Source: Ancylobacter amanitiformis | GTDB taxonomy: Bacteria > Pseudomonadota > Alphaproteobacteria > Rhizobiales > Xanthobacteraceae | Length of the DNA stretch: 64,000 bases | Direction of reading: 5' to 3' | NCBI RefSeq assembly: GCF_030814815.1 | Contig: NZ_JAUSVR010000001.1 | Span: 372,001-436,000, forward strand | The notes under the pieces: model-generated | Told to the model about the DNA's origin: nothing | The model's input: only the letters and a program-made list of their open reading frames with translations | Database searches by the model: none | In this document: one piece after another, positions 3 through 18,697 of the stretch | How positions within the stretch are numbered: position 1 is the first letter of the stretch | How the letters are laid out: each line of letters opens with the position of its first letter | Program-made: the position numbers and the translations under genes

Positions 3-467
3 CTGGAAACCTGCCTGGAGCCGCTGCTTGCGGCGCTGCGTCAGGCCCTGAATGTGGTCATCGAACGCAATGTCGTGCCCCTGCCCCTCCAGGAACGCGG
101 CTATGGCATCCGCACGGCCACCATCATGGACCGCACCATCTTCTCGGGCGGGCGCTTCATCCTGGTCGCCAGTGCCGGCATTCCCCATGAGACCCTGCGC
201 ACCCAGCTGCCGGCTACCACCAAGGTGGGGTCTGTCGAGCAGATCCGCGATCTGGTGAACCTTCAGCTGCCCGGCATCCCCTTGCGCTCGCTGCCGGTGG
301 CGCCGCGAGAACTGCCCTATCTCCAGGGTGCGGTCTATTTCGAGATGGACCAGAGCGTGGAACTGTGGCGCAGTCTTGCGCGCTCGGCAGCCTTCGCCTT
401 CCATGTGAGCGGTGACTATCCGGACCTGCACCTGGAATTCTGGGCCATCCGGGCGGTGCAGCCGTGA
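3..467 (+). CDS. tssK: TssK, T6SS baseplate subunit (C-terminal part, cut by window start)
   Basis: Only the last 154 residues are present; the frame is open to the left edge. TssK is the trimeric baseplate protein that joins the TssF/G wedge to the TssJLM membrane complex in the cytoplasm. The visible part resembles the TssK C-terminal region that docks on TssL/TssM: it holds the stretch GGRFILVASAG, the LVNLQLPGIPLRSLPVAPREL segment with its short proline-rich run, and a YFEMD...W tail. Its TGA overlaps the GTG of tssL by 4 bp, so the two are probably translationally coupled. Identity rests on this C-terminal pattern and on its position directly before tssL-tssM. Confidence 0.85.
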   Translation: METCLEPLLAALRQALNVVIERNVVPLPLQERGYGIRTATIMDRTIFSGGRFILVASAGIPHETLRTQLPATTKVGSVEQIRDLVNLQLPGIPLRSLPVAPRELPYLQGAVYFEMDQSVELWRSLARSAAFAFHVSGDYPDLHLEFWAIRAVQP

Positions 468-1375
468 ACCAGGCCTCCAACACGGGCGACGATGAACCCA
501 CCGTCATCGGCCACCGGCCGGTAGCGGTGGGGCGCAACGGCGCGGTTCCGGATGGCGCGCGCGCGACCGCGCCAATTCTGCCCGTCGACCCCGCCATGCC
601 ACTGCGGCCCGCACCATCCAACTCCGCCCCCTCCTCTCCACAGCCTGTGCCCGGGCTGCTGGCGGAACTGCCGCTATCGGCCGATGCCAGCCGGCCCGAG
701 GAACTGATTGCCGCCGCAGCCACGCCGCTTCTGGCCCTGGCCGCGCAGTTGCGGCAGTCGGTGGACTATGCGGATGTGACCGCTCTGCGAACCGAGACGG
801 TGGCCCAGATCAAGAAGTTCGACGAGCGCGCCATAAAGCTCGGCGCCCGCGTTTCCGATGTCAGCGCCGCTCGCTACGTTCTGTGTTCGCTGCTGGACGA
901 AACGGTGATGACAACCCCGTGGGGCGCCGCCAGCAACTGGAGCACTCACAGCCTGCTCAACCAGTTCCACGGCGAGACCTGGGGCGGGGAGAAGGTGTTC
1001 GCCATTCTGGATCGTGTGCGCGCCAACCCGCCGCAACGCCTCGCTCTCCTGAAGCTGATCGACCTGTGCCTCGCGTTCGGCTTCGAGGGCAAGTACCGGG
1101 TCATGGAGGGCGGCCAGTACCAGCTGGAGGAACTGCGCGACGAGTTGGGGCGGCTCTGGCGCAGCCATGTGAAGGCATTGCCGGAGGATCTCTCCCCACA
1201 GTGGCAGGGCGTGTCCGTGCGCCGCAAACTGCGCGCGGCGTTGCCGCTCTGGGTGCTATTCGCCGTGGCCGGAGCGCTCCTTCTGGGAATTTACGGACTG
1301 TTCGCCTTCCGCCTGGACCAGGGGCTCAAGCCCATTGAACAGCGGTTCGAACGTATCGGCGTGCCGAGGATCTGA
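464..1375 (+). CDS. tssL: TssL (DotU/IcmH family), T6SS inner-membrane protein, short form
   Basis: This 303-residue protein has a proline-rich disordered N-terminus (about residues 1-75), then the all-helical cytoplasmic DotU domain (motifs YVLCSLLDE, FHGETWGGEKVF, CLAFGFEGKYR) and a single C-terminal membrane helix near residues 258-283. Together with TssM and TssJ it forms the trans-envelope complex and contacts the TssK baseplate. There is no C-terminal OmpA/peptidoglycan-binding domain, so this is the short TssL type, and peptidoglycan anchoring would need another protein. The GTG start overlaps the tssK stop (GTGA); tssM follows 9 bp downstream. Confidence 0.95.
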   Translation: MNQASNTGDDEPTVIGHRPVAVGRNGAVPDGARATAPILPVDPAMPLRPAPSNSAPSSPQPVPGLLAELPLSADASRPEELIAAAATPLLALAAQLRQSVDYADVTALRTETVAQIKKFDERAIKLGARVSDVSAARYVLCSLLDETVMTTPWGAASNWSTHSLLNQFHGETWGGEKVFAILDRVRANPPQRLALLKLIDLCLAFGFEGKYRVMEGGQYQLEELRDELGRLWRSHVKALPEDLSPQWQGVSVRRKLRAALPLWVLFAVAGALLLGIYGLFAFRLDQGLKPIEQRFERIGVPRI

Positions 1376-1384: not shown

Positions 1385-4300
1385 ATGCTCAACGCCGCCA
1401 TTACCGAATTGCTGCGGGTTCGAAACCTGCTGATTTTGCTCGGCATGCAGTGCGTTGCCATCCTGATCTGGTTTGTCGGGCCATCGGTGAGCATCGCGGG
1501 CGTGGCACCCCTCGCCAGTGTCGGCGCGCGCATCGGCGCCATCGCGGCGCTGTTTGTGGTCGTGTTTGCCGCCACGGTCCTGCGCATTTTTCTGGCCCGA
1601 CGGGCCAATGCGCTGGCGATCCGCAATCTGCTGGATTCCGACGGCCTGGCAACGCTTGCCACCGACAAGTCATCCGATGAGATCGAGCTGATCCGCGAGC
1701 GCTTCGAAAGCACGATGCGGGTTTTGAAGGACACCGCGATCGGCAAGGAGTCCGGGCGCAACTACATGATCCAGTTGCCGTGGTACGTGGTCATCGGACC
1801 ACCCGGCGCCGGCAAGACAACGATCCTGAAGAATTCCGGCCTCACCTTCCCGCTGGCCGAACGTGTCGGTGACGACCCGGTCGCCGGGATCGGCGGCACC
1901 CGCTATTGCGACTGGTGGTTCACCGACGAGGCGGTGCTTATCGACACGGCCGGGCGCTATACCACGCAGGATATCAACAGCGAGGTCGACAAGGCCACCT
2001 GGCGCGGCTTTCTGGAACTGTTGCGCACCCACCGCGCCCGCCGGCCCATCAACGGCGTGATCATCGCCATCAGCCTTGCCGACATGGTGTCGGGGGACGA
2101 GGCCACCCGCAGGAAGCATGTGGAGGCCCTCAAGAAGCGGCTCCAGGAACTGATGCGCTTCTTCGGCATGCCGGTGCCGGTCTACGTGCTGTTCACCAAA
2201 TGCGACCTGGTGAGCGGCTTCAGCGAGTATTTCGAGGAACTGGACGACACCGGCCGGGCCCAGGCCTGGGGCACCACCTTCGCGCTGGACGATGCCACCG
2301 CCGAGCCCGGAGCGGGTTTCGACCGCCGCTTCCTGGGACTGGTGGAGCGTCTGGAAGGCCGGCTGATGCGGCAACTGCACCAGGAGCGCAGCATTGCCCG
2401 GCGGTGTCGCATTTTCACCTTCCCGAAGGAATTCGCCAGCCTGCGCGATCCCCTGAACACTTTCATCGCCGACGTGTTCAAGGCCAGCCGATTCGAGATG
2501 CGTCCGATCCTGCGCGGTGTCTATTTCACCAGCGGCACTCAGGAAGGCACCCCCATGGACCGCCTTCTGGGCTCCATGAGCCGCAATTTCGGGCTGGCCG
2601 GCACCCGCCAGACGGCTTTCAGCGGCAAGGGCAAGGCCTTCTTCATCAACCGGGTCCTGACCGACGTGGTGTTCGAGGAGCAGGGCCTGGTGGGCGTCAA
2701 CCGCCAGCTGGAGCGGCGCCTGTCCATGGTGCGCGGGCTGGCCTATGTGGCAACGGCCGGGTTCACCCTCGCTCTCGCATCCGCCTGGATCTTCGGCGCG
2801 GCTCGGAGCGAGATTCGGATCGGCGAGACCCGGATTGCGCTCGACGATCTGGAGCGCCAGCTGCAGGGCCTGCCGCCAAATGCCAGCTTCAATGATCTTC
2901 TGCCGACATTGAATGCCGCGAGCGCCCTGGAGGACATTGCCGGCAAGCGCGACAGCTGGATCAATTCCGAAAGCCTCGGCCTCTCCGCGGTGCCGCGCCT
3001 CAGCTCGGCCTCCAGCTCGGCCTATGATCGCCTGCTGGTCACACGACTGCTGCCCAGTCTGGCCAATCGGCTGGAAAACCGCATCGACCAGGACCAGCGG
3101 CTGGGGACGCCGGCTGCGCTCGAAGATCTGCGCACCGCGCTGCGCAACTATCTGATGCTGGGCGAGCCGGCCCGTTTCGACCGCGCCACCATGAGCCAGG
3201 TGGCGAAGACCGAAGCCGTGCTGAGCTTTCCGCTGGATACCGCCAAGCAAAGCCAGATGGCGGATCATCTGGCGGCGCTGATGGCGCTGATGCCAAAGCC
3301 CTATCCGTTGAACCTGGCCCTGATCAGCAGCGCCCGCACGAAGCTCGCCAAGGTGCCGCAGGTGGATCAGGTCTATGCCCGGCTGCTGCGCGAAGGGTAC
3401 CAGAACCCGGCCCTCGCCAGCCTTGATCTTGGGCAGGTTGTGGGCGCGCGCAGCCTGACCGGCACCCGGGACGCGCAGGCCAATGGCGGTCTGGTCATTC
3501 CCGGCCTTTTCACCCGCCCTGGCTTCTACAACTACTTCCTGGTGCAATTGCCCATTCTGGTAAGTGAAGAGCTGGGGTCGGATTGGGTCGCCGGTGGCGG
3601 CAGCCAGCCGCAGGCTCAGGCCCTCGCCCGTCAGATCGCCGATCGCTATGTGAAGGACTATGTGGCCACCTGGCAGAGCGCCCTCGCGCGCATCACGCCC
3701 GTGCGGTTCAACGACATGCCGCGGGCCATGGCGGTGCTGCAGAACCTGGCGGGCCCGCAGTCCCCGGTGGATGCGCTGGTGGCGAGCGTGCGCGAGAACA
3801 CCGATCTGCCGCCACCGGGGCAGGAGACCAACGTGCCGCCGCCGCCCGGCTCCGCCCCGCCCCAGGTCTCGCCGCTGACAGTGGCCGCCAGCAAGGCCGG
3901 CGGAGCCGTGACCAATGCCGCCACCAGCGCCGCTCTGGGCGAAGGCCCATGGCCGGGCAAGACCATTACCCAGCCGTTCATCCCCCTGATCCAGCTGGCA
4001 TCGCCCGGCGCTGCCGGCCAGTTGCCGGCGCTTGGCCGCATCCGCGATCTGCTGAGCAACGTATATGGCGTGATGTCCGGCGTCGCCAACGCGCCGCAGC
4101 CGTCGGTGGCCGCTTTCCAGATCGTCGCCAACCGGATCAAGGACCAGAGGAACGACGCCTTCGCAGCCCTCAGGGCCGATTCCGCGCTTCGGCCGGAGCC
4201 GGTGCGCACCATTCTCCAGGTGGTGGGTGACAGTGCCTGGGCCACACTGCTGTCGCTCGCCTACCAGAATGTGAACCAGGCCTGGAAGCAGGACGTGTTG

Positions 4301-4963
4301 CCGGTCTGCGAAAGTTCCATCGCGCGGCGCTATCCGATCTACGCGGATGCCAAGGACGAGGTGACGCTTACCGATTTCACCGATTTCTTTCGGCCCGGCG
4401 GGGTGCTCGATACGTTCTTCACCCAATACATGGCCGGCTTCGTTGTGGATCAGCGTGGCACCTATGTTCCGGTGACGGTGGACGGGTCGCGGGTGCCGGT
4501 GAGTCAGGCGGCGCTGTCGCAATTCAGCCGCGCCCGTCAGATCCGGGACGCCTTCTTCCCCAACAAGGGACCGACCCTGCTGGTGAAATTCAGCGTCAGA
4601 CCGACCTTCCTCTCACCCAATGTGCTGCGGGCAACCTTGTCGGTCGATGGCAGCGACATCGTCTATCGCCACGAAGCCCCGCGCAGCTATGACCTGGATT
4701 GGCCCACGCGCAGCGATGCCAGCACGGTATCGGTGACCCTCAGCCCTGTGGCCGGCGCTGATACCAAAGTGCAGCGCTCCGGTCCCTGGGCGCTGTTCCG
4801 CTTCATCAGCGCCTCGTCACCGCGCGGACGCTCGGAACGCCAGTCCTTTACGGTCAACGGACCCGACGGCGCCAGCGTCACCTATGATCTGCGCTCGGGC
4901 AGCGTGAACAGTCCGTTCAATCTCGGCGCCCTCGCCAGCTTCCGCTGTCCGGACGACCTATGA
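1385..4963 (+). CDS. tssM: TssM (IcmF family), T6SS inner-membrane ATPase-like core protein
   Basis: This 1192-residue protein has the family's usual length and layout. Two N-terminal membrane helices lie within about residues 10-70. They are followed by a cytoplasmic NTPase-like domain with an intact Walker A (GPPGAGKTT, about residues 138-146) and the DTAGRYTTQD segment. A third helix near residue 455 leads to a large periplasmic IcmF-related and C-terminal region (FFRPGGVLDTFF and the RSERQSF end). It spans the envelope and links the baseplate to the outer membrane. A GAGGAA ribosome-binding site sits inside the tssL stop region. The stop overlaps the tagF start (ATGA). Confidence 0.96.
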   Translation: MLNAAITELLRVRNLLILLGMQCVAILIWFVGPSVSIAGVAPLASVGARIGAIAALFVVVFAATVLRIFLARRANALAIRNLLDSDGLATLATDKSSDEIELIRERFESTMRVLKDTAIGKESGRNYMIQLPWYVVIGPPGAGKTTILKNSGLTFPLAERVGDDPVAGIGGTRYCDWWFTDEAVLIDTAGRYTTQDINSEVDKATWRGFLELLRTHRARRPINGVIIAISLADMVSGDEATRRKHVEALKKRLQELMRFFGMPVPVYVLFTKCDLVSGFSEYFEELDDTGRAQAWGTTFALDDATAEPGAGFDRRFLGLVERLEGRLMRQLHQERSIARRCRIFTFPKEFASLRDPLNTFIADVFKASRFEMRPILRGVYFTSGTQEGTPMDRLLGSMSRNFGLAGTRQTAFSGKGKAFFINRVLTDVVFEEQGLVGVNRQLERRLSMVRGLAYVATAGFTLALASAWIFGAARSEIRIGETRIALDDLERQLQGLPPNASFNDLLPTLNAASALEDIAGKRDSWINSESLGLSAVPRLSSASSSAYDRLLVTRLLPSLANRLENRIDQDQRLGTPAALEDLRTALRNYLMLGEPARFDRATMSQVAKTEAVLSFPLDTAKQSQMADHLAALMALMPKPYPLNLALISSARTKLAKVPQVDQVYARLLREGYQNPALASLDLGQVVGARSLTGTRDAQANGGLVIPGLFTRPGFYNYFLVQLPILVSEELGSDWVAGGGSQPQAQALARQIADRYVKDYVATWQSALARITPVRFNDMPRAMAVLQNLAGPQSPVDALVASVRENTDLPPPGQETNVPPPPGSAPPQVSPLTVAASKAGGAVTNAATSAALGEGPWPGKTITQPFIPLIQLASPGAAGQLPALGRIRDLLSNVYGVMSGVANAPQPSVAAFQIVANRIKDQRNDAFAALRADSALRPEPVRTILQVVGDSAWATLLSLAYQNVNQAWKQDVLPVCESSIARRYPIYADAKDEVTLTDFTDFFRPGGVLDTFFTQYMAGFVVDQRGTYVPVTVDGSRVPVSQAALSQFSRARQIRDAFFPNKGPTLLVKFSVRPTFLSPNVLRATLSVDGSDIVYRHEAPRSYDLDWPTRSDASTVSVTLSPVAGADTKVQRSGPWALFRFISASSPRGRSERQSFTVNGPDGASVTYDLRSGSVNSPFNLGALASFRCPDDL

Positions 4964-5718
4964 GCTCCCCGAACCGGCGCGGAGGCGGACTCTTCGGGAA
5001 GATCCCCACCACCGACGACTTCATCCGTCGCCACCTGCCGCTTGGCTTCGTAACCCCCTGGGAACGCTGGATCGCCAGCGTGATCGGCGGCGACGGCACG
5101 CTCTCGCGCGAGATGTGGATCCAGCGCTACCTCACGAGTCCGCCCTGGCATTTCGCGCTGGATCCGGGGGTGGCCGGCCCCTGCGGCTGGGTGGGGGTGC
5201 TGATCTCCTCCGTGGACAGCTTCGGGCGCGCCTTTCCGCTCACTCTCGCGGTTCCCTTCTCCCGCTCCTGCGGGCTTCTCGACCTCCACGAGGAGACGCA
5301 CCGCCTTGCCGGCACTCTCGAGACCATGGCCCTGGACCTGATCGAGGGCGATATGCCCGTGGATGTCGCGGCCGAATATCTGGCTACCCTGCACCTCGCC
5401 GCGCTGCCGGAGCGCCATTCCGTGTGGCGGCAGGTGCGCGGGAATGTACGGCAGGGCAACCGGCTCTGGATCCTCACCGGGCGCCGCCATCGCTCGGTGG
5501 GGTGCGCCGCCAGCGACCTCCTGACGGGCGTTCTGCGCGAACAGGCCAATCGTCCCGCCGGTCTGACATGCTGGTGGCACGAAGGCTGGGGCGACTTTCC
5601 CCCCGCCAATGTGCTGGTGCAGGGCCTACCCGGCGTGGACACCTATATGCGCATGATGGATGGCGCGTGGACCGACGATTTGCCGGCGCAGCCCCTTGCG
5701 CGGGAGGCTCCGCGATGA
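4960..5718 (+). CDS. tagF: TagF, T6SS-associated post-translational regulator
   Basis: This 252-residue protein opens with the TagF/ImpM signature GLFGKIPTTDDFIRRHLP, followed by a WHFALDPG..GPCGWVGVLISSVDSFGRAFPLT block typical of the domain. In Pseudomonas and Agrobacterium, TagF represses T6SS assembly at the post-translational level, acting with or parallel to the PpkA/PppA phosphorylation switch; that role is transferred here by homology. The gene overlaps tssM upstream and pppA downstream by 4 bp each (ATGA), so it is embedded in the regulatory part of the operon. It is a stand-alone protein, not the TagF-PppA fusion found in some alphaproteobacteria. Confidence 0.92.
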   Translation: MSSPNRRGGGLFGKIPTTDDFIRRHLPLGFVTPWERWIASVIGGDGTLSREMWIQRYLTSPPWHFALDPGVAGPCGWVGVLISSVDSFGRAFPLTLAVPFSRSCGLLDLHEETHRLAGTLETMALDLIEGDMPVDVAAEYLATLHLAALPERHSVWRQVRGNVRQGNRLWILTGRRHRSVGCAASDLLTGVLREQANRPAGLTCWWHEGWGDFPPANVLVQGLPGVDTYMRMMDGAWTDDLPAQPLAREAPR

Positions 5719-6446
5719 CCGGCGCGCCGACCCGGCCGATCCTGCCTTGGCAGCTCGATGTCTCCTCCGCCAGCCGCGCCGGCGTCTCGCGGCAAATGAA
5801 CGAGGACTCGTTTGCCGTGATGGCCGAGCAGGCGCTCTTCGCGGTGGCGGACGGCATTGGCGGGCTGGTGGAGGGCGCGGTTGCCAGCCGGGCCATTGTC
5901 GAGGTTGTCGCACGCGTGGTCACGCCCGGCGCTTCGCTGGAAACCCGGGTGCGCGAGGCCGAGGACGCCTTGCACCACGTGAACGACGCATTGTTCGAGG
6001 AGGGCCTTGGACGGCGGCCGCCCGTCAACCTGGGCTCGACCATCGTCCTGCTGCTGGTGGGTGAGACGGCAGGCGTCTGCCTGTGGGCGGGAGATTCCCG
6101 GGCCTATCTGCGCCGCGGCGGCGAACTTCATCAGCTGACGCACGACCATTCCCTGTGCGCGCAACATGGCGGCATCCACCCCCGCAACGTCATCACCCGC
6201 GCCATCGGCCCCAGCCGCGAGGTGGAGATCGATTGCTGCGTGGTGGACATTGCCCCCGGGGACGTGCTGCTGCTGTGCACGGATGGGGTCAGCAATGTTC
6301 TCGATGACGCCCGTCTCACGCAGCTCCTGCGCGGCCCCATGGCCGGCATGGCCGACCGGATCGTCACCGAAGCCGTGACCCGAGGCTCGCGCGACGATGT
6401 CACCGCCGTGACCGTCCGCATCCCGGCCGGCGAGGATCTGCCGTGA
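5715..6446 (+). CDS. pppA: PppA-type PP2C Ser/Thr phosphatase of the T6SS
   Basis: This 243-residue PP2C (Stp1-like) phosphatase has the metal-binding motifs MNEDSF (about residues 29-34), FAVADGIGG, GSTIVLLLV, WAGDSRAYL..GELHQLTHDHS, LLLCTDGVSN and SRDDVTAVTV, so all key aspartates appear present. The known PppA dephosphorylates the T6SS substrate (often the FHA protein) phosphorylated by PpkA and switches secretion off. I chose the ATG at 5715 because it overlaps the tagF stop (ATGA) and starts just before the domain; the open frame extends further upstream only inside tagF. It is coupled to the next gene by a GTGA overlap. Confidence 0.93.
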   Translation: MTGAPTRPILPWQLDVSSASRAGVSRQMNEDSFAVMAEQALFAVADGIGGLVEGAVASRAIVEVVARVVTPGASLETRVREAEDALHHVNDALFEEGLGRRPPVNLGSTIVLLLVGETAGVCLWAGDSRAYLRRGGELHQLTHDHSLCAQHGGIHPRNVITRAIGPSREVEIDCCVVDIAPGDVLLLCTDGVSNVLDDARLTQLLRGPMAGMADRIVTEAVTRGSRDDVTAVTVRIPAGEDLP

Positions 6447-7405
6447 GCCGGGCGGTCCCGCCGCACCACGTGCCGGGCCGCGTCTCCCGCGATGCGGCGA
6501 CGCCGTCGCTGCTGCCCCATTATCTAGGCGCCCGCCTCAAGGACCGCTATGAACTGATCCAGGTGATCGGTCGCGGCGGCATGAGCACGGTCTATCACGC
6601 GGTGGATCACATTCGCCTGCGCGGACGCGCCTCGCAACCCCATGTGGCGGTGAAGGTGGCCAGCATGCCACCGCCCTATGACCATGCCGCGCACGAACTG
6701 ATCCACCGCGAAGCCCAGCGCATGCAGCGTCTGGTGCATCCCAATATCGTCCGGGTGTTCGACAGCGACCATCAGGACGACACCCATTTCCTGGTCATGG
6801 AACTGCTCACCGGCCGCACGCTGGCGACCGTCCTGCCGGAAGGCGCCGGCAAGGGCCTGGACTGGCCGCAGGCGCGCCGGGTCGTCGAGGGCGTCGCGGC
6901 GGCGCTGGGCCACGCCCATCGAAATGGCGTCATCCATACCGATCTAAAGCCGGGAAATGTCTTCATCGGCGGCGACGGAACGGTGAAGGTGCTGGACTTC
7001 GGCCTCGCCCAGAGCACCGGCGGCGGCGATGCCCACCAGCCGGACGCCACAATCCGCTATCTCGATTTTGTGGGCGGATTAACGCCTTCCTTCGCCTCGC
7101 CGGAACGTCTGGCGGGGGCCGCGCCCACTCCCGGATGCGATCTTTTTGCCTTCGGCCTGCTGATCTACATGGTGCTGTGCGGAGCGCATCCATTCCAGCG
7201 GCGCAACGCCGAAGAGGCCCGGAAGATGGGCCTGCAACCCCTGCGGCCGCCGGGCCTGGCCCTGCATCGCTGGCGGGCCTTGCGGGCCTTGATGGACTTC
7301 GACCCCGCGGCCCGACCGGCCAGCGTGGACGCCTTCATGACCCGCTTCCTCGCACCGCGTTTCGGTCCGCGCGCGTTGCTGGACGTGATGCGGACGGGAG
7401 GCTGA
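6443..7405 (+). CDS. ppkA: PpkA-type Ser/Thr protein kinase of the T6SS
   Basis: This 320-residue cytoplasmic Hanks-type kinase has the Gly-rich loop GRGGMSTVY at about 43-51, the ATP lysine in VAVKVAS at 71, the catalytic loop HTDLKPGN at 165-172, DFG at 185-187 and FASPERL. The usual HRD is HTD, so it is a non-RD kinase. No membrane helix, VWA or FHA domain follows the kinase domain, so it is shorter than Pseudomonas PpkA. By homology it phosphorylates a T6SS component to trigger assembly, opposed by the phosphatase encoded immediately upstream. The GTG start overlaps the pppA stop. The next gene starts 4 bp after the stop. Confidence 0.92.
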   Translation: MSRAVPPHHVPGRVSRDAATPSLLPHYLGARLKDRYELIQVIGRGGMSTVYHAVDHIRLRGRASQPHVAVKVASMPPPYDHAAHELIHREAQRMQRLVHPNIVRVFDSDHQDDTHFLVMELLTGRTLATVLPEGAGKGLDWPQARRVVEGVAAALGHAHRNGVIHTDLKPGNVFIGGDGTVKVLDFGLAQSTGGGDAHQPDATIRYLDFVGGLTPSFASPERLAGAAPTPGCDLFAFGLLIYMVLCGAHPFQRRNAEEARKMGLQPLRPPGLALHRWRALRALMDFDPAARPASVDAFMTRFLAPRFGPRALLDVMRTGG

Positions 7406-7409: not shown

Positions 7410-7958
7410 GTGTCAGGAGAGCCGACAGATTCCTCGCCCGGCACACCCGGCGTGAAGGCGAACGGTCCACGACTGTCGGAGACCTTGTCCCGGCTGGACA
7501 AGGTATGTCACGAGATCGCCCGCGGCAATTACGGCAATACGGATGATCTGTTTGCCTTGACCGTCGATCCCACGGCATCTCAGACCATCCGCGAACTCGC
7601 GGAATCCTTCGGCAGTATGCTGGTGCAGGTGGAAGCGCGCGAATTTCGCCTTACCGGCCTCATCGAGGAGTTGCGCGAGGCCCATCGGCAACTGGAAGAC
7701 GCCAACCGGCAACTGGCCCGCGAGAATGTAACGCTGGCCCGGAAGGTGCAGACGCTGACCATCGAGATCGACCGCCAGCGCTTCAAACGCGAGGTGGGCG
7801 AGATCATCGAGACCGATTATTTCCAGGATCTGCAGAAGCGCGCCCGGTCCATGCGCGCCCGCGTCAGAGGCGCCGGCGCCCCACCGGACGGCTCGCCCGA
7901 GAGTGGCCCGACCGCCGATGGCAAGAACCCGAACGGCGAACCACAGGACGGTCCATGA
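7410..7958 (+). CDS. Coiled-coil protein linked to the T6SS kinase/ATPase module, function unknown
   Basis: This 182-residue hydrophilic protein has a GTG start 4 bp after ppkA. The N-terminal ~70 residues look helical (LSETLSRLDKVCHEIARG). Residues about 85-125 form a strong coiled coil (VEAREFRLTGLIEELREA, NRQLARENVTLARKV). A conserved-looking C-terminal block, VGEIIETDYFQDLQKRAR, is followed by a disordered Pro/Gly/Ser tail. The block resembles short motifs I recall at the ends of some signalling proteins (adenylate-cyclase-like coiled coils), but I cannot verify this. The gene overlaps the following ParA-like ATPase gene by 4 bp, so a physical partnership of the two products is likely. 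I do not recognise a named family. Confidence 0.75.
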   Translation: MSGEPTDSSPGTPGVKANGPRLSETLSRLDKVCHEIARGNYGNTDDLFALTVDPTASQTIRELAESFGSMLVQVEAREFRLTGLIEELREAHRQLEDANRQLARENVTLARKVQTLTIEIDRQRFKREVGEIIETDYFQDLQKRARSMRARVRGAGAPPDGSPESGPTADGKNPNGEPQDGP

Positions 7959-8725
7959 TGACGCGCATCGTATCCACCCATTCCTACCGGGGCGGCACCG
8001 GAAAATCCAACATCACCGCCAATGTCGCGGCTCTGCTTGCAGAGCGGGGCCATCGGGTGGCGGTGGTGGATACGGACATCCACTCGCCGGGCATCCATGT
8101 GCTGTTCGGTCTCGATCCGTCCGCCATACGCTTCACCCTCAATGATTATCTCTGGGGTCGCTGCGCGGTGGAGGACGCCGCCGTGGATGTTACCAATGCC
8201 GCCCTGCGCGACCCTTCGCGGGCCGGCAGCGGGAAGGTGCTGCTGGTACCCTCCTCGATGCGAGCGGGCGAAATCGCGCGGGTGCTGAAGGAGGGTTATG
8301 AAGTCGACCTGTTGAACGAGGGCTTTCACGCGCTCTGCGAGCGCCTGCGGCTGGATTATCTGCTGATCGACACCCATCCCGGCGTCAATGACGAAACCCT
8401 GCTGTCCATCGCCATTTCCGATTGCCTGCTGCTCGTGCTTCGCCCCGACCACCAGGATTATCAGGGCACCGCGGTAACCCTGGAACTGGCCCGCCGGCTG
8501 GAGGTGCCGCAATTGCTGTTGGTGGTGAACAAGGCGCTGGCCTCGTTCGATGCCAAGGCGCTGGCAGAACAGATCTCGGTGGCCTATCGCTCGCCCGTAG
8601 CGGCAGTGCTGCCCCTCACCGAGGATCTGGTACGCCTGGGCAGCGCCGGCGTGCTCAGCGCCCAGATGCCCGACTGCGCCTATGTGAACGGCCTGCGGCA
8701 GGTGGTCGACCAGTTGGAAGGCTGA
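7955..8725 (+). CDS. ParA/MinD-like P-loop ATPase in the T6SS operon
   Basis: This 256-residue SIMIBI-class ATPase has the deviant Walker A as SYRGGTGKSN at about 8-17, VVDTDIHSPGIHVLFG (Walker A' region), LLIDTHPGVND (Walker B) and LLLVVNKA. The usual signature lysine of the ParA/MinD Walker A (KGG) is Arg here, so dimerisation or hydrolysis behaviour may differ. No C-terminal amphipathic MinD-type helix is obvious. Family members position protein complexes at membranes, poles or nucleoids, so a role in placing or counting T6SS machines with the coiled-coil partner is an inference. The ATG overlaps the previous stop (ATGA), and this is the last + strand gene of the locus. Confidence 0.85.
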   Translation: MMTRIVSTHSYRGGTGKSNITANVAALLAERGHRVAVVDTDIHSPGIHVLFGLDPSAIRFTLNDYLWGRCAVEDAAVDVTNAALRDPSRAGSGKVLLVPSSMRAGEIARVLKEGYEVDLLNEGFHALCERLRLDYLLIDTHPGVNDETLLSIAISDCLLLVLRPDHQDYQGTAVTLELARRLEVPQLLLVVNKALASFDAKALAEQISVAYRSPVAAVLPLTEDLVRLGSAGVLSAQMPDCAYVNGLRQVVDQLEG

Positions 8726-8795: not shown

Positions 8796-10220
8796 TCAGG
8801 GCAGCGAACCGGACTGCCAGTTCGACGCGCGCAGGAATGCCTGCGCATCGGCCAGCCGGTCTTCGGGGGCGAAGGCTAGCGCGTCGCGCACCGCCGCCTG
8901 CTCCTGCGGGCGCAGCAGGGGCAGCGGCGCGGGCGCCATCCCCTTGGCCAGAGCGTCCAGCGCCGTGGCCCGGCCGAACGGATGATGCCCGGTCATCATC
9001 AGGTGGATGAGGCATCCCAGGGCATAGACGTCGTCACGCGGGTCCCGCCGCGCACCACGCAGACGTTCCGGGCTGGCGTAAACCGGGGTCATGGCATCCA
9101 GCCGCGAACCATCGAAGCCGCCATCGTCCCGCGCGGCACAGGAAATGCCGAAATCCAGAATCTTCAGGGTACCGTCGATGCACAGGAACAGATTTGCGGG
9201 TTTCAGGTCGGCATGCACCACGCCGCGCGCATGGGCCAGGGCCAGGCCGGCGCACAATTCCCCCACGGCCCGATGGGCGGCCGGACTTCCCACGAAACCC
9301 GGATTCGGATCCTTCAGCGCCACATCCAGGGAGCGCCCTTCCAACAGTTCCATCACCATGAACACATGGTCGCCGTCGCGATCGAAATCGTGCACGGCCA
9401 CGATATTGGGATGCGGCAGATCCTGGGTGCGGCGGGCCTCCGCCTCCATGGCACGGAGGGCGTCGGGATGGGTGCGAAAATCGCCCGCCAGCAATTTCAG
9501 CGCCACATAGGGACGCCGCGCCTGCGCCTCCAGCCGCCGCCGATCAACCGCGCGATACACCACGCCCATGCCGCCGCGGCCCAACTCCTTGTCGAGAACG
9601 AAGCGGTCGCGCAGCATATGCCCGATCATGTTGCGCTCCGGCGATGCCTCCGCCACGGGATAGGCTCGGGCCTCGCCCGAAGCCGCCTTGCGGGCATCAT
9701 GGCGGGTGCGCACGCCGCGAAAGGCGGCCAGCGCCGCATCGAGATGGCGCTGCGGCGTCGGGGCACGGCCAGCATCGGCCTGCCGGCGGTCCCTGTATTG
9801 CCCCACAAGCGCCTGGAGCACCACGGAATCGACCTTGCGCCGCAGTTCCTCGTCGGTGTCCGCGGCAGGCGCGTCGCCTCCGGCCGCACGGGCCCCCGGC
9901 TCCGGCTGGCCCGCCTCCGCCGCGGCATCATCGGTCTCGACACCGTCATTCGGGGCGGTTTCGGCCGGGGCGGTTTCGCCGGCCCGGTCCTTCGCGACGT
10001 CCCGATAGACCAGCACCGCCAGATCATAGGGCAGGCGCCCCGCATCGATGAAGCTCTGCAAATGCCTGGAGAGTTGGGCCAGGCCATCCTCACGCGCCCG
10101 CACGAGAGCGCGCAGATCCAGCACAAGCTTCTCGAACGGACAGTGCCCGGCAAGAAACGTCGTCAGCGCCCCATCGAATGAAGCCGGGATGCTGGGCCCC
10201 GAAGGAGAACGTGCGGAAAT
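8796..10220 (-). CDS. Second T6SS-linked Ser/Thr protein kinase (start unusual)
   Basis: The C-terminal ~290 residues are a Hanks-type kinase: GRGGMGVVYRAVD, VALKLL, HADLKPANLF (HAD replaces HRD), LDFGISC, YASPERLRG. An Ala/Glu-rich linker and an N-terminal helical region precede it. The first conventional start is GTG at 10124. However, the same frame stays open upstream to 10235 and encodes what looks like the true N-terminal domain (ASFDGALTTFLAGHCPFEKL) without any ATG, GTG or TTG. An ATT at 10220, preceded by a GAGGA at suitable distance, is the best candidate; CTG at 10163 is another. The stop codon of the upstream sigma-54 activator is in this same frame. The kinase identity is secure and the start is not. 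Confidence 0.85.
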   Translation of the reverse strand: MSARSPSGPSIPASFDGALTTFLAGHCPFEKLVLDLRALVRAREDGLAQLSRHLQSFIDAGRLPYDLAVLVYRDVAKDRAGETAPAETAPNDGVETDDAAAEAGQPEPGARAAGGDAPAADTDEELRRKVDSVVLQALVGQYRDRRQADAGRAPTPQRHLDAALAAFRGVRTRHDARKAASGEARAYPVAEASPERNMIGHMLRDRFVLDKELGRGGMGVVYRAVDRRRLEAQARRPYVALKLLAGDFRTHPDALRAMEAEARRTQDLPHPNIVAVHDFDRDGDHVFMVMELLEGRSLDVALKDPNPGFVGSPAAHRAVGELCAGLALAHARGVVHADLKPANLFLCIDGTLKILDFGISCAARDDGGFDGSRLDAMTPVYASPERLRGARRDPRDDVYALGCLIHLMMTGHHPFGRATALDALAKGMAPAPLPLLRPQEQAAVRDALAFAPEDRLADAQAFLRASNWQSGSLP

Positions 10221-10235: not shown

Positions 10236-11924
10236 TCACGCCCGCTCGGGCTGGCGGATGGCGTAGCGCTGGACCTTGTCCACCAGACTGCGCCGCGAGA
10301 TTTTCAGCAGGCCCGCCGCCCGGCTCTGGTTCCAGCCGCTCTCGCGCAGCTGCACCTCGATCAACGCCGCCTCATAGCATTGCACCATGGTGCGCAATCC
10401 CCCGCCCGCCTGCGGATGGGCCGGCGGAACCGGGGCCGGTATCGCCGGGTCACTCCGTAGTTCCGGCGGCAGATGGCCCAGTTCCAGGCGTCCTCCGTCA
10501 CACAGCAAAATGGCGCGCTCGAGGATGTTCTTCAGTTCGCGCACATTGCCGGGGAAGCGCCATTTCATCAACACATCCAGCACCCCGGGGCTGAGCGCGG
10601 GAGGCGCGCGGCCGATGGCCTCGCACGCCCGCCCGAGAAAATGCTCGATCAGCGCGGGAATGTCGGACGGGCGCTCCCGCAGGGCCGGCAGGGTGATGGG
10701 GAAGACGCTGAGCCGGTAATAGAGATCCTCACGAAACTGTCCGGAGGCGATCTTGGCCGGCAGGTCCGCATTGGTCGCGGCGACGATGCGCACGTCCACA
10801 TTCTCGGTGCGGGTGTCGCCCACCCGGCGCGCCTCGCCCTGACCCAGCAGGCGCAGGATCTTGGCCTGCAGGCCCAGCGGCATGTCGCCGATCTCGTCCA
10901 GGAACAGCGTGCCGCCATGCGCTTCGTGGACAAGGCCCTTCTTGTCCATATGAGCCCCGGAAAACGCCCCCTTGCGATAGCCGAACAACTCGCTTTCCAG
11001 CAGGTTCTCCGGTAGCGCCGCGCAATTCTGCACCACCAGCGCCTTGCCCTTGCGTGGCCCCAGGCTGTGCAGAAGCTTGGCGAACACCTCCTTGCCGGTT
11101 CCGGTTTCACCCAGCAGCAGAACCGGCACATCGGCGGGAGCGGCGCGGCGCAGCAGGGCGACCGCGGACTGGAAAGCCGGGCTCTCGCCAATCACTCCCT
11201 TCCCCGCGCCAATCCCGCTGCGCAACCGCGAATTCTCCAGGGCCAGGTCGGCATTGGCTCGATCCAGCTGGCGAATGAGCTGGCGGTTCTCCTCGAACAG
11301 CCGCGCGTTTGAGATGGCCACCGCCGCATGGGCGGCAAACGCGCGCACGATGCGCTCGAATGGAGGTGTCAGCGCCACGGGCGCGCCGCCCGCCTCAAGG
11401 CGGGTGTTGGTGAGCTGGAGCACGCCCAACGTCACCCCCTCCAGGCTGCGCAAGGGCAGCACCAGGAACGAGCGGGTGCGGAAGGATCCCCGCGCCTCGC
11501 GCCGGTAGAGTTCGGCGAAGTCGAAGCCGCTATAGGCGCGCACATCGGCAAGGTTCACCATGCGTCCGGTGACCGCCGCATAGGCGCTCGGATCTTCCAT
11601 GTGGAAGCCCCCGCCGGCGCGATAGAGCGCCACCGGCTGAACCAGCCCGGCGGCATCGGGGGCGCCATCATTCTGGCCCACGATGCAATAAAGCTCGCGC
11701 CCCGTTCGGTCGAGCACCAGCACCCGGCCGCCATCCGCGTGAGTGAGGCGGCGTGCGGAACTGACCACGGCACTGATCACGCTCTCCAGCCGCCGTTCCG
11801 TCGACAAAGCGGTCGTAAGCTCGATCAGTTCCTCGATGACTCCCAACGGGTCGCGCACGAAGAGATCCGGCGGCGATATCAGCGGCGATATCAGCGACTT
11901 GGGCACGTTTTCGGGCTCCGACAC
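10236..11924 (-). CDS. Sigma-54-dependent transcriptional activator (GAF-AAA+-Fis) of the T6SS
   Basis: This 562-residue enhancer-binding protein has an N-terminal GAF-like sensory domain (about 30-210) and a coiled linker. Its AAA+ domain carries Walker A GETGTGKE (near 272), Walker [11 protein letters not shown] and arginine-finger region, and it ends in a Fis-type helix-turn-helix ([18 protein letters not shown]). The sigma-54-contacting GAFTGA loop reads GAFSGA, a conservative change. Such activators drive hcp/vgrG genes in other T6SS loci; the -24/-12 promoter found before hcp in this window fits. The GTG start lies 3 bp after the clpV stop, so it is probably transcribed with clpV, giving possible positive feedback. 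It ends just before the second kinase. Confidence 0.93.
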
Positions 11925-11927: not shown

Positions 11928-14702
11928 TCAGGCATCCAGCCCGACACCCGGCGCCCCGGTGCGGGCAGCGGCATCCTCCCGGCGATAGAGGAAGCGCCCC
12001 TCCGCATTGGTGTCCACATGTATGGCGCTGGCCTGCGGCTCGCGGCCCGTGCCCATCCCCATGCCCATTCCCTGCAGGATTTCGGTGGCGATGTCCGGCA
12101 ACAGCGTCTTGTTGACGATATGGTCAATGTTGCGCGCTCCGGTCTCCACATCGGTGCAGCGGGCAACGATCTGCTCCACCACCGCGTCGGAATAGACAAA
12201 GGCCATCTTCTGGCTGTCGCGAAGCCTGCGGCCCACCTTGTCCAGCTTGAGGCGCACGATCTCGCCGAGAATATCGCCCAGCAGCGGATAGAACGGCACG
12301 ATCTGCATGCGCGCCAGCAGCGCTGGCTTGAAGTGCCGCGACAATTGCGGGCGGATCGCCTCCACCAGGGCATCGGTGCCGGGGCGCGGCGTCATCTGGC
12401 CCATGCGGGTCAGCGTGTCGGTCGCCAGGTTGCTGGTGAGGATGACGATTGTGTTCCTGAAGTCCACCACCCGACCCTCGCCATCGGACAGAACACCCTT
12501 GTCGAACACCTGATAGAACAGGTTCATCACCTCCGGATCGGCCTTCTCCACTTCGTCCAGCAGCACCACGCTATAGGGCCGCTGGCGCACCGCCTCGGTC
12601 AGGATGCCGCCCTCGCCGAAGCCGACATAGCCGGGGGGCGAACCCACCAGCTTGGAGACGGTGTGCTTCTCCTGGAATTCCGACATGTTGATCGAAATCA
12701 GGAAGCGCTCGCCACCGAACAGCAGGTCCGCCACCGCCGTTGCCAGCTCGGTCTTGCCCACGCCGGAGGGGCCGACGAACAGAAACACGCCCATGGGTTG
12801 GGTCGGACTGTTGAGGCCCGCCTTCGCGGCGCGCATGCCCTCGTCGATGGCGGCGATCGCCTGATCCTGTCCGCGGATCCGGCGCTCAAGATCGCCGGCC
12901 AGAGCCAGGATGGAACGGGCCTCGTCGCGCACCATGTTGCCGGTGGGAATGCCGGTCCAGTCGGAGATCACCTGCCCCACCGCATCCGGGGTCACTTCGT
13001 AGTGCAGCAGACCGTTTCGGCCCTGGATCGCCGCCAGTTCGGCCACCACGCGGGCGAGTTCGGCCCGCACCACAGCGGCGGTGCTCCCCTCCGCGGCGAG
13101 ATTGTCGGCCGGCATCGGCGCCGCTTCGGCGACGACATGCGCAGTGGGCGCGTCCGTGGCCGTTTCGGGATCGGCCAGAGCGTTGATTTGCTGACGCAAG
13201 GCAAGGATCCGGTCCACCAGCCCCTTCTCCCTCCCCCAACGCTCCTCCACCGCGGCGATCTCGGTGCGCAGTTGCGCCACTTCCTCGGCAATCTCCCGAG
13301 CGCGGGGGCGGTCACCGCCGCCCAATGTGTCCTGGTCGCGGGTCAGCGCGGAGAGTTCGCGCTCCAGCATGGCGATGCGCCGCTCCCGGCTGTCGAGGGC
13401 ATGGGGGCGATTGCTCAGGCCCAGCTTGACCCGGGCGCAGGCCGTGTCGAGCACATCCACCGCCTTGTCCGGCAGCTGGCGGCCGGAAATGTAGCGGGCG
13501 GCCAGTTGGCTTGCCGCCACCACGGCGTCATCGCGCACATAGACATTGTGGCTGCGCTCGTAGATCGGTCGCAGGCCGCGCAGAATGGTGGTGGCTTCCG
13601 CCGGGCTCGGCTCATCCAGCTTCACCACCTGGAAGCGCCGCTCCAGCGCGGAATCCTTTTCGAAATACTTCTTGTATTCACTCCATGTCGTCGCGGCGAT
13701 CGTGCGCAGTTCTCCGCGCGCCAGCGCCGGCTTGAGCAGATTGGCCGCGTCTCCGCCGCCCGCCGCGCCGCCCGCCCCCACCATCATGTGGGCCTCGTCG
13801 ACGAACAGGATGATGGGCGTGGGCGAGGCCTTCACCTCTTCGATGATTCCCTTGAGCCGGTTCTCGAACTCGCCCTTCATCCCCGCGCCGGCCTGGAGCA
13901 TCCCCAGATCAATGCCCACCAGTTCCACCTGCCGAAGAAATTCCGGCACGTCCCCCTGGGCGATCTTGAGGGCAAGGCCCTCGACGACGGCCGTCTTGCC
14001 CACGCCCGGCTCGCCGACGCAAATGGGATTGTTCTTCCGACGACGACCCAGAATATCAATCATCTGCTGGATCTCGCGATCCCGGCAGAATACCGGGTCG
14101 ATCTTGCCGGCCCGCGCCTGAGCGGTGAAATCGGTGGCGAAGCGGGCCAGAACACTGTCGGGATTGCGCTGGCCGTGGCCCGCGGGGCGCCCGCCCGCCG
14201 GGCCGCTGGAAACCGCCGCGGCGTCGCTCTCGACGGACGTGGCGAGAAGCCCGTGAAACTCTGCCTTGAACCGGGCGCTCGATACCTGCCGAAGGGTCTC
14301 CCACCATTCGGTAAGACCGAACCGGTTGCCATTGGCCAGCACCGCCAGCAACACCGCGCCGGAGCGGGTCGCGCTTTGCCCCAGCTCCACCGAAGCCAGC
14401 AGCCACGCATCGGTGAGAATCTCGATGAGCACCGGCGCGAACACGGGACGGCCCGGATTCCCAACCTTCATCTCCTCAACCGCGCGCTGCAGCTGGCGCT
14501 TCAGGCTGGCGGTCTCGACGGCGTAGTGGCGCAGGGCCAGGCCCAGATCGCGGTCGGTGTCATCCACCATGGCGAGAAGGAAATGCTCGACGGTCACATC
14601 ATAATTGCCGCGCCCCACCGCAAGGCCCGCCGCCATCTCCAAGGCGCGCTTGGTATAGGGCGACAGGCGGTCCAGAAGCGGCTTGAGATCCAGCGACAAC
14701 AT
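11928..14702 (-). CDS. clpV: ClpV (TssH), T6SS sheath-disassembly AAA+ ATPase
   Basis: This 924-residue Hsp100/ClpB-like protein has an N-terminal Clp-N domain (double helical repeats to about 160). Two AAA+ modules follow, with Walker A GEPGVGKT near 229 and GPSGVGKT near 644, the Walker B segments IILFVDEAHMMVG and SVVLLDEVEKADPEVMN, and a middle coiled-coil region between them. ClpV recognises the contracted TssB/C sheath and recycles it in the cytoplasm. The middle domain contains extra Ala/Thr-rich sequence (about residues 500-545), as in many alphaproteobacterial ClpVs. It is followed after 3 bp by the sigma-54 activator and preceded at 291 bp by hcp on the same strand. Confidence 0.96.
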   Translation of the reverse strand: MLSLDLKPLLDRLSPYTKRALEMAAGLAVGRGNYDVTVEHFLLAMVDDTDRDLGLALRHYAVETASLKRQLQRAVEEMKVGNPGRPVFAPVLIEILTDAWLLASVELGQSATRSGAVLLAVLANGNRFGLTEWWETLRQVSSARFKAEFHGLLATSVESDAAAVSSGPAGGRPAGHGQRNPDSVLARFATDFTAQARAGKIDPVFCRDREIQQMIDILGRRRKNNPICVGEPGVGKTAVVEGLALKIAQGDVPEFLRQVELVGIDLGMLQAGAGMKGEFENRLKGIIEEVKASPTPIILFVDEAHMMVGAGGAAGGGDAANLLKPALARGELRTIAATTWSEYKKYFEKDSALERRFQVVKLDEPSPAEATTILRGLRPIYERSHNVYVRDDAVVAASQLAARYISGRQLPDKAVDVLDTACARVKLGLSNRPHALDSRERRIAMLERELSALTRDQDTLGGGDRPRAREIAEEVAQLRTEIAAVEERWGREKGLVDRILALRQQINALADPETATDAPTAHVVAEAAPMPADNLAAEGSTAAVVRAELARVVAELAAIQGRNGLLHYEVTPDAVGQVISDWTGIPTGNMVRDEARSILALAGDLERRIRGQDQAIAAIDEGMRAAKAGLNSPTQPMGVFLFVGPSGVGKTELATAVADLLFGGERFLISINMSEFQEKHTVSKLVGSPPGYVGFGEGGILTEAVRQRPYSVVLLDEVEKADPEVMNLFYQVFDKGVLSDGEGRVVDFRNTIVILTSNLATDTLTRMGQMTPRPGTDALVEAIRPQLSRHFKPALLARMQIVPFYPLLGDILGEIVRLKLDKVGRRLRDSQKMAFVYSDAVVEQIVARCTDVETGARNIDHIVNKTLLPDIATEILQGMGMGMGTGREPQASAIHVDTNAEGRFLYRREDAAARTGAPGVGLDA

Positions 14703-14993: not shown

Positions 14994-15509
14994 TCAGGTG
15001 GCCGGCTTGCGCCAGTCGTCGGAACCGGAGGTGCCGGCCTTCTCGTGCGTCCATGTCACCTGGCGATAGGTGAAGGACCAGTCTTCCATGTGCTGGAGCT
15101 GGGCGTTCTCCGGCAGCAGGCAGTTGGGGATCATGGCCTTGCCGTCCACCAGCACGGCGTCTTGCCATTTGATGGTGAAGTATTTTTCCTGCTGCCCGGT
15201 CTTGGACGTGCGCCAGAAGAACAGTTCAACCGTGGTCAGAACTTCACCGGTAGCCAACGCCTGCCACAGCAGCGGCGAAGCCTTGTCCTGATACTTGGTG
15301 AAGGTCGCCGGCTGGTGCACGCGCCCGCCGGTCGGCTGACCCGACTGCGGATCGCGGGGAATCATCACATTGCTCATGAAGCCCTGGACGATGCTCTCAT
15401 CCTCGTGGCCTTCCTGATAGGAATTGCCCACGCTGTCGGCGGTGAAGGCGCCCTTGGTGATAAGGCCCTGCTTCTCGCCGGTGATGCTGATGTAAGCGGG
15501 TGTCGGCAT
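14994..15509 (-). CDS. hcp: Hcp (TssD), T6SS inner-tube protein
   Basis: This 171-residue protein begins MPTPAYISITGEKQG and contains the Hcp-family pattern SYQEGHEDESIVQGF, HQPATFTKYQDKASPLLWQAL, VELFFWR and YFTIKWQDAVL, ending in an LEDWSFTYR-like motif (MEDWSFTYRQVTWTHE). Hexameric rings stack into the secreted tube and can carry effectors in the lumen. A GAGGG ribosome-binding site lies 8 nt before the ATG. Upstream are a sigma-54 promoter and a distal inverted repeat, so it is probably controlled by the activator encoded at 10236-11924. It stands apart from its neighbours by about 245 and 291 bp, consistent with its own strong transcription unit. Confidence 0.96.
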   Translation of the reverse strand: MPTPAYISITGEKQGLITKGAFTADSVGNSYQEGHEDESIVQGFMSNVMIPRDPQSGQPTGGRVHQPATFTKYQDKASPLLWQALATGEVLTTVELFFWRTSKTGQQEKYFTIKWQDAVLVDGKAMIPNCLLPENAQLQHMEDWSFTYRQVTWTHEKAGTSGSDDWRKPAT

Positions 15510-17972: not shown

Positions 17973-18697
17973 CCCACCGTCACCCTTTTGCCGTCGAAGC
18001 GCACATCCTCCTTGGCCACCAGAACGGCGGTGCCTGCGGTGGTGCTGGTGATGCCGGCCACTGACTGCGTCACGGTGCCGGCCTCCAGCACATCGATATC
18101 GCGCACCAGGACGACCCGCGATTGCGCCTGCACCGCGATCTGGTCGGCCACCACCTCCCGCCGCCGGGCGGTGGAGCGCAGATGATCGGCCACGAGGGTG
18201 ACAAGCCGCCCCACAAGGAAGACGGCGTGGGCGCGGATGCCCACGGTGCGACTCTCGATGGTCACGTCCCGCGCCGCCGCCAGCGCCAGCGTGTCGCCGG
18301 CAGCAAGTTCCAGCCGGGGGGCAGCAACGGTGAGCCGCTCCACGCCTGGCGCCGACAAGGTCGCGGCAACAGGCAGCAGGCGATCCAGCACGGCGAGCAC
18401 GAAGCGCGTGCCTTCCACCTCGGCCAACAGCACCCGGTCCCCCACGACCGGCTCCACGAGACAGCCGAAGGCGCGGATTGCCGTATCCTCGACCTCGCCG
18501 AAAACCACCCTGATCCGACCATCGGCCCCCGGCCCCAGGACGCGGGCCGCGTGCACGCCCGCCGGCGCGGGCACCACGGCCACGGATGCCGAAGTCTCCC
18601 GGGCGACGGGCCGATCCCTCCCATCGCCCACAGGATCTGTAATGGATGGCGCAACACTCACAATCGCATCCCCCAAGGCCAGCACGCCACATGTCAC
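17969..18697 (-). CDS. DUF3540 domain protein, T6SS spike-associated
   Basis: This 242-residue protein fits DUF3540 proteins found beside VgrG and DUF2169/DUF4150 genes. It has an N-terminal variable part, a beta-barrel-like stretch (ARVLGPGADGRIRVVFGEVE, CLVEPVVGDRVLLAEVEG) similar to the OB/gp5 fold of VgrG, and repeated beta-strand segments later (LAAARDVTIESRTVGIRA). It may extend or cap the spike or help load cargo; this is inferred from context. The GTG start overlaps the vgrG stop (GTGA) and the stop overlaps the TPR gene start (ATGA). Confidence 0.8.
   Translation of the reverse strand: MTCGVLALGDAIVSVAPSITDPVGDGRDRPVARETSASVAVVPAPAGVHAARVLGPGADGRIRVVFGEVEDTAIRAFGCLVEPVVGDRVLLAEVEGTRFVLAVLDRLLPVAATLSAPGVERLTVAAPRLELAAGDTLALAAARDVTIESRTVGIRAHAVFLVGRLVTLVADHLRSTARRREVVADQIAVQAQSRVVLVRDIDVLEAGTVTQSVAGITSTTAGTAVLVAKEDVRFDGKRVTVG

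What the first reader, a model, noticed from the sequence alone, without database searches (positions are those of the whole stretch)
7410..8725. Coiled-coil protein plus ParA/MinD-like ATPase translationally coupled to the T6SS phosphatase-kinase switch
tagF, pppA, ppkA, a coiled-coil gene and a ParA-like ATPase gene follow one another with 4-bp overlaps or a 4-bp gap. ParA/MinD ATPases position large complexes, but I know of no described one acting in T6SS control. The pair could place or count T6SS machines, or read out their phosphorylation state. The gene order and overlaps are seen directly; the positioning role is inferred.
Basis: partly seen in the sequence, partly recalled or inferred. 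Interest (0 to 1): 0.7.

Follow-up and report, generated by a model that had tools for sequence, protein, structure and literature searches.

The report
Sensor-linked MinD-type ATPase in T6SS
Next to genes for a bacterial weapon (the type VI secretion system) sits a two-gene module, a sensor-like coiled-coil protein and a MinD-type ATPase, that belongs to a wider and apparently undescribed signalling pair found in several phyla, which suggests that the weapon is controlled through a borrowed signal switch rather than a positioning device.

Summary
In detail: tagF, pppA, ppkA, a coiled-coil gene and a ParA/MinD-like ATPase gene run head to tail with 4-bp overlaps or a 4-bp gap. Positioning is not supported. 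The coiled-coil protein matches the cytoplasmic half of HAMP-type receptors (HAMP, coiled coil, C-terminal helix), without sensor and membrane parts and with a 28-residue (four-heptad) insert. Its ~30-residue C-terminal motif also ends diverse sensors (Cache, CHASE2, PAS, GAF, FHA, cNMP-binding, Tll0287) in cyanobacteria and Chloroflexota, where it tracks the ATPase by genome: 42 of 45 ATPase-positive genomes carry it, 1 of 252 negative ones. It is therefore probably the docking or control helix of this ATPase family, which has Arg for the signature lysine. The alphaproteobacterial pairs found (18 loci) lie in T6SS clusters (17 show structural genes; one contig is too short). PppA-PpkA is next to the pair in 6 of 18; STAS and HATPase genes in 11 of 18; a second kinase in 18 of 18. 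Best reading: a receptor-ATPase signalling module, recruited perhaps once into T6SS, feeding Ser/Thr-phosphorylation control. Direct binding and output are inferred.

The parts
7410..7958 (+). HAMP-coiled-coil protein (182 aa), cytosolic receptor-like half
   Evidence: ORF; aligned to the C-terminal half of HAMP receptors by local hhalign, 99.4%, E 2.3e-21, reversed decoy E 0.12; model helices 19-37, 44-51, 58-133, 136-155
7464..7643 (+). degenerate HAMP-like region, about residues 19-78
7644..7727 (+). 28-residue insert (four heptads) in the coiled coil, residues 79-106
   Evidence: present in 16 of 16 T6SS rows, absent from 12 of 12 receptor rows of alignment A6
7779..7868 (+). C-terminal motif (residues 124-153), proposed ATPase-docking helix; predicted helix 136-155
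   Evidence: alignment A2; genome co-occurrence with the ATPase; model
7955..8725 (+). MinD/ParA-like ATPase (256 aa)
7988..8008 (+). Walker A RGGTGKS, Arg at the signature-lysine position
   Evidence: R12 invariant in 25 of 25 rows; table of Walker A motifs in PMC9178275 (passage)
6443..7405 (+). PpkA-like Ser/Thr kinase
   Evidence: Pfam Pkinase
5715..6446 (+). PppA-like PP2C phosphatase
   Evidence: Pfam PP2C_2
4960..5718 (+). TagF
   Evidence: Pfam TagF_N, TIGR03373, both above cut-off
8796..10124 (-). second Ser/Thr kinase (Kin2), convergent with the ATPase gene
   Evidence: Pfam Pkinase; adjacent in 18 of 18 pair-bearing loci, window included
10236..11924 (-). GAF + sigma-54 activator + Fis-type HTH regulator
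   Evidence: Pfam; found in 16 of 18 pair loci within the DNA held
11928..14702 (-). ClpV
   Evidence: Pfam AAA_2, ClpB_D2-small, Clp_N
14994..15509 (-). Hcp
   Evidence: Pfam T6SS_HCP
464..1375 (+). TssL
   Evidence: Pfam DotU
1385..4963 (+). TssM
   Evidence: Pfam IcmF domains

Best explanation
The pair is a signal-transduction module. The coiled-coil protein is a cytosolic HAMP-type signal transmitter that probably dimerises; its C-terminal helix docks on the MinD-type ATPase and sets its ATP-bound dimer state, much as MinE, ParB N-termini or FlhF do for their ATPases (recalled analogies). In cyanobacteria and Chloroflexota the same helix ends membrane or cytosolic sensors, so this ATPase would be a direct output of receptors. 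In one alphaproteobacterial lineage the module was recruited into T6SS clusters, where the ATPase most likely relays the signal to Ser/Thr phosphorylation control (the adjacent second kinase, PppA-PpkA here, or STAS/HATPase genes in related clusters). Shown: architecture, homology, co-occurrence, neighbourhoods. Inferred: docking, ATPase switching and, least surely (about 0.35), the phosphorylation output.
For: Motif and ATPase co-occur by genome: cyanobacteria 20 of 23 ATPase-positive against 1 of 123 negative (that hit weak, E 0.0068); Chloroflexota 22 of 22 against 0 of 129 (Fisher; without the 5 genomes that gave rows to the motif model 37 of 40 against 1 of 252, p 3e-42; no correction for relatedness). 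40 of 80 non-alphaproteobacterial motif hits lie within 5 kb of an ATPase gene, about 0.3 expected. A model built from T6SS forms only finds the motif in other phyla at E down to 1.6e-11 (best reversed decoy 0.08). The motif ends sensors with HAMP, dCache, Tll0287, CHASE2, PAS, GAF, FHA or cNMP-binding domains. The T6SS protein matches the HAMP-coil-motif half of 12 such sensors along its length; these were picked because they carry the motif, so only the HAMP part (E 8.9e-7) is independent of that choice. All 18 alphaproteobacterial ATPases in a quick tree lie on one side of a branch of support 100 (SH-aLRT) from the 76 others. STAS and HATPase genes stand in 11 of 18 pair-bearing loci and in 0 of 19 pair-less alphaproteobacterial T6SS loci, read to about 10 kb either side of TssK. 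The same gene kinds flank ATPases of this family in Deinococcus, Streptomyces and one Chloroflexota locus.
Against: No binding or complex model could be tested. Half of the non-T6SS motif hits lie farther than 5 kb from an ATPase gene or on another contig (40 of 80), and only 18 of 70 non-T6SS ATPase genes have the motif within 1 kb, 46 of 70 within 5 kb. Three ATPase-positive cyanobacteria have no motif hit, nor has the acidobacterial genome at E 0.05, and none was found near the Streptomyces relative. SpoIIE-type phosphatases flank only 3 of 48 non-T6SS loci scanned, the three that gave the search model its seeds, so a phosphorylation output is not general for the family; small winged-helix-like genes are commoner neighbours there. 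In pair-bearing clusters the STAS/HATPase genes sit beside the pair, often some 10 kb from TssK, so the 0 of 19 is not a like-for-like control. The window itself has no STAS/HATPase genes. HAMP assignment by Pfam is below cut-off.
Confidence: 0.57

Rival explanations
1. FleN-like anti-activator: the ATPase, gated by the HAMP-coil protein, binds and restrains the sigma-54 activator encoded two genes away, so the pair sets how much T6SS is made.
For: FleN and FlhG are among the best fold matches, including FleN-FleQ complexes; a sigma-54 activator gene lies close by in 16 of 18 pair loci. FleN antagonises FleQ (passage in PMC9178275).
Against: The family is found in cyanobacteria, which lack sigma-54 (recalled), so this would be a T6SS-specific use. 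MinD chains match better than FleN, and Soj/ParA chains about as well. Two of 18 loci show no activator in the DNA held.
Confidence: 0.2
2. Positioning or counting of T6SS machines in the ParA/MinD manner.
For: MinD/ParA fold; the alphaproteobacterial pairs found lie in T6SS clusters.
Against: Acidic protein, no amphipathic C-terminal tail by eye; Arg in place of the signature lysine, though McdA, a positioner, also lacks it (PMC6328274, passage); relatives go with sensors.
Confidence: 0.12
3. A cargo module without a T6SS role that merely travels with this cluster type.
For: Patchy: 1 of 30 same-genus genomes, 1 of 199 Rhizobiaceae drawn; the ATPase is absent at E 1e-40 from 336 of 337 class genomes, although 60 of 337 have TssK.
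Against: In 18 of 18 alphaproteobacterial loci it has the same convergent kinase, in 17 with T6SS structural genes; each of 12 genomes tested has exactly one copy; identity to the window ATPase is 65-89% in 12 of the 13 other pair-bearing rows aligned, 56% in the last.
Confidence: 0.1

Closest known systems
MinD-MinE and ParA-ParB (ATPase plus activating helix)
   Same: MinD/ParA fold, catalytic P-loop lysine and switch Asp kept; small partner encoded beside it with a conserved terminal helix
   Different: Arg at the signature lysine; no evident membrane tail; the partner is a HAMP-type signal transmitter and the helix is C-terminal and shared by many sensors
FlhG/FleN with FleQ and FlhF
   Same: fold; a nearby sigma-54 activator gene and a secretion-type machine
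   Different: FleN and FlhG keep the signature lysine (KGGVGKT, KGGVGKS; table in PMC9178275); no HAMP partner known (recalled); binding not tested
McdA-McdB (carboxysome positioning)
   Same: a ParA-type ATPase that lacks the signature lysine
   Different: McdA has Ser there (PMC6328274, passage) and acts on the nucleoid (title); McdB is not described as a HAMP protein (recalled)
BcsQ
   Same: Arg at the signature-lysine position
   Different: BcsQ is RGGVGTT, without the catalytic lysine (PMC9178275); its partners differ (BcsR, BcsE; titles)
T6SS threonine phosphorylation pathway (PpkA, PppA, Fha, TagF)
   Same: these genes are present in this cluster
   Different: the passages seen of PMC3953482 name no HAMP-coil protein or MinD-type ATPase in it
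SpoIIE-RsbW-STAS partner switching
   Same: STAS and HATPase_c_2-type genes stand near the pair in 11 of 18 pair-bearing loci, with SpoIIE in 4
   Different: not found in this window's cluster; this ATPase is not a known part of that system (recalled)
S-helix / HAMP signal transmitters (PMC1592074)
   Same: parallel coiled coil between a sensor and an output
   Different: here the output is in a separate protein, reached through a C-terminal helix; the abstract and passages seen name no ParA/MinD output

Membership tests
MinD/ParA superfamily (fold level) | MinD/ParA fold | tested here: met
MinD/ParA superfamily (fold level) | P-loop lysine and conserved Asp of switch/Walker B | tested here: met
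   K17 nearly invariant, D39 and D139 invariant, D41 nearly so in 25 rows
canonical deviant-Walker-A ATPases (MinD, ParA, FleN) | signature lysine (KGG) | tested here: not met
   R12 in 25 of 25 rows; table in PMC9178275
MinD proper | C-terminal amphipathic membrane-targeting helix | tested here: inconclusive
   C-termini listed show no basic amphipathic tail by eye; no predictor was run; the model ends in a helix 242-255 packed in the fold range
ParA-type nucleoid positioners | non-specific DNA binding | not testable with these tools
   pI 5.3, net charge -8 speak against it
FleN/FlhG | binds a sigma-54 activator or FlhF | not testable with these tools
   activator gene nearby only
HAMP domain proteins | HAMP sequence profile | tested here: inconclusive
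   Pfam HAMP in 7 of 17 members, best E 0.0036; profile match to HAMP receptors E 8.9e-7 for that part
T6SS threonine phosphorylation pathway | PpkA, PppA and Fha encoded in the cluster | tested here: met
   (presence of genes; membership of the pair itself is not shown)
partner-switching module | STAS plus RsbW-like HATPase beside the pair | tested here: not met
   absent from the window and L031 at E 1e-4; met in 11 of 18 pair-bearing loci

The most novel reading that the evidence does not exclude
A previously unrecognised class of signal transduction: sensors of many kinds share a C-terminal helix whose output is a dedicated MinD-type ATPase with an Arg-type Walker A, forming a two-protein receptor-ATPase system across at least cyanobacteria, Chloroflexota, Deinococcota (one locus) and Proteobacteria; one T6SS lineage has adopted a membrane-free version as a control input.
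Probability: 0.45. Interest if true: 0.85.

Novelty: new variant of a known kind. Interest (0 to 1): 0.7.

Why it matters
If true, receptors that now read as having no output (they end after HAMP and a coiled coil) would have one: a MinD-type ATPase. That links receptor signalling to the ParA/MinD world, gives a short, testable docking helix, and supplies a candidate input for control of one T6SS lineage in soil and plant-associated Alphaproteobacteria.

Full report
What is there. The five genes lie as described, within a T6SS that has TssA, TssF, TssG, Fha, TssJ, TssK, TssL, TssM, ClpV, Hcp, VgrG and a PAAR-like gene. Downstream, on the other strand, follow a second Ser/Thr kinase (here Kin2), a sigma-54 activator, ClpV and Hcp.

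The coiled-coil protein. On its own it looks like a plain coiled coil. Against the cytoplasmic ends of 12 motif-bearing sensors it aligns along its length (hhalign 99.4%, E 2.3e-21; the HAMP-like part alone E 8.9e-7; reversed decoys 0.12 and 0.44). The sensors were chosen because they carry the motif, so the HAMP-part score is the independent one. The one large difference is an insert of 28 residues, four heptads, in 16 of 16 T6SS rows and 0 of 12 receptor rows. The model gives a helix, a connector with a short helix, one long helix (58-133), a break at residues 134-135, then a separate helix 136-155 (block means of pLDDT 93-99 over residues 21-150).

The motif and the ATPase belong together. 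The ~30-residue C-terminal motif is shared with sensors elsewhere (alignment A2). I asked in the same draws of genomes for the ATPase (E 1e-60 or better) and for the motif (E 0.01 or better). Cyanobacteria, 146 genomes: 23 with ATPase, of which 20 have the motif; 123 without, of which 1 has a weak motif hit. Chloroflexota, 151 genomes: 22 with ATPase, 22 with motif; 129 without, 0 with motif. Together 42 of 45 against 1 of 252; leaving out the five genomes that contributed rows to the motif model, 37 of 40 against 1 of 252. Genomes were treated as independent and the two centre genomes carry the pair by choice, so the p-values overstate the case; the pattern itself is strong. In 64 genomes chosen for having the ATPase, 61 have the motif at E 0.05; in the 16 alphaproteobacterial ones it lies beside the ATPase gene in 16 of 16, with one extra weak hit in one genome. 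In the others 40 of 80 motif hits are within 5 kb of an ATPase gene (about 0.3 expected for 5-Mb genomes) and 40 are farther away or on other contigs, so partners may act in trans. The motif mostly ends within 16 residues of the C-terminus; in several cyanobacterial proteins it is internal with a second, weaker copy nearer the end.

Which sensors carry it. Pfam finds HAMP, dCache, Tll0287, CHASE2, PAS, GAF with PrsW, FHA with GAF, and cNMP-binding domains upstream of the motif. An acidobacterial neighbour (L024) looks like an FHA protein by eye, with a weak motif (E 0.03).

T6SS loci. I hold 18 alphaproteobacterial loci with the full pair: the window, 13, 3, 1. They were found by similarity to the window's ATPase, so more distant alphaproteobacterial pairs could be missed. 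All 18 have Kin2 beside the ATPase gene; 16 have the sigma-54 activator in the DNA held; 17 show T6SS structural genes, and the 7-kb contig L012 is too short to. Upstream, 6 have TagF-PppA-PpkA (window, L005, L006, L026, L032, L033). Eleven have STAS and HATPase genes: in the same direction directly before the pair in L008-L011 and L013; with a SpoIIE phosphatase in L012, L014, L017, L148; and on the opposite strand in L007 and L025. One (L034, 11-kb contig) shows neither. The name RsbW-like rests on Pfam HATPase_c_2 and is a label, not a test. In 8 clusters read further out, TagF and PppA are present in 8 and PpkA in 7 (the eighth runs off its contig), but elsewhere in the cluster. I read about 10 kb either side of TssK in 19 other alphaproteobacterial T6SS loci (all 19 strong TssK hits besides the window's own; the 42 weaker hits were not read): none has the pair or the STAS/HATPase genes. 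The whole genomes behind them also lack the ATPase at E 1e-40. Because in pair-bearing clusters the STAS/HATPase genes sit beside the pair, often some 10 kb from TssK, their absence from the 19 is only a rough control. The pair is rare: 1 of 337 in the class, where 60 of 337 have TssK; 1 of 30 in the genus; 1 of 199 in the family of G679, Rhizobiaceae. In a quick tree of 94 ATPases the 18 alphaproteobacterial rows (the remote G224 row among them) lie on one side of a branch of support 100 and the 76 others on the other side: one recruitment is the simplest reading, not proved, since the tree has no outgroup and some branches are long.

How it most likely works. A cytosolic HAMP-coil dimer takes a signal (unknown) and, through its C-terminal helix, controls the ATP state of the ATPase; the ATPase then acts on the phosphorylation control of the T6SS. 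The first step rests on homology and on the genome-level bond between motif and ATPase; the second on analogy with MinE, ParB and FlhF (recalled); the third on neighbourhood only: a kinase in 18 of 18, and PppA-PpkA or STAS/HATPase genes next to or near the pair in 17 of 18. Outside T6SS, SpoIIE with STAS and HATPase genes stand beside the ATPase in Deinococcus (L149), Streptomyces (L151, a 38-39% relative without the motif nearby) and one Chloroflexota locus (L020), but in only 3 of 48 loci scanned, so the link is not a family rule.

Verdict. The pair is neither a plain coiled coil nor a plain ParA: it is a soluble relative of receptor-ATPase pairs of which ten paper searches in an open-licence library, with capped lists, showed me no description.

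Noticed in passing
L035:8994-9719 (G224), also L030: A remote MinD-like protein (37% identity, Walker A RGGVGTTT, BcsQ-like) directly follows TssK in another T6SS; no coiled-coil gene was found upstream and the contig ends there.
   Followed up: partly
L153, L154, L155, L157, L160, L162, L163, L165, L167, L170, L174, L178, L180, L186, L188, L020, L149: In 17 of 48 non-T6SS loci scanned a small (about 100-130 aa) winged-helix-like gene lies within about 300 bp of an ATPase gene (weak IclR/MarR/TrmB matches in 4 of 5 scanned), a possible output.
   Followed up: partly
L019, L020, L149, L152, L156, L158, L159, L161: Several Chloroflexota loci and the Deinococcus locus carry two ATPase copies of this family side by side or a few kb apart.
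   Followed up: no
L014:3951-7413 and L012, L017, L148: Rhizobiaceae pair loci with a SpoIIE phosphatase (dCache-HAMP-SpoIIE in L014), HATPase and STAS gene directly before the pair: an apparent partner-switching input to a T6SS.
   Followed up: partly
L149 and L151: In Deinococcus and Streptomyces the ATPase lies with STAS, HATPase and SpoIIE genes beside glycogen genes (GlgX in both, GlgB and a maltosyltransferase in Streptomyces).
   Followed up: no
window 8796-10124: The second Ser/Thr kinase is the most constant neighbour of the pair, more so than PppA-PpkA; its roughly 165-residue N-terminal part has no Pfam match.
   Followed up: no
window 16107-22823: Beyond Hcp lie a TPR protein, VgrG, a PAAR-like gene and a pentapeptide-repeat protein on the minus strand.
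   Followed up: no
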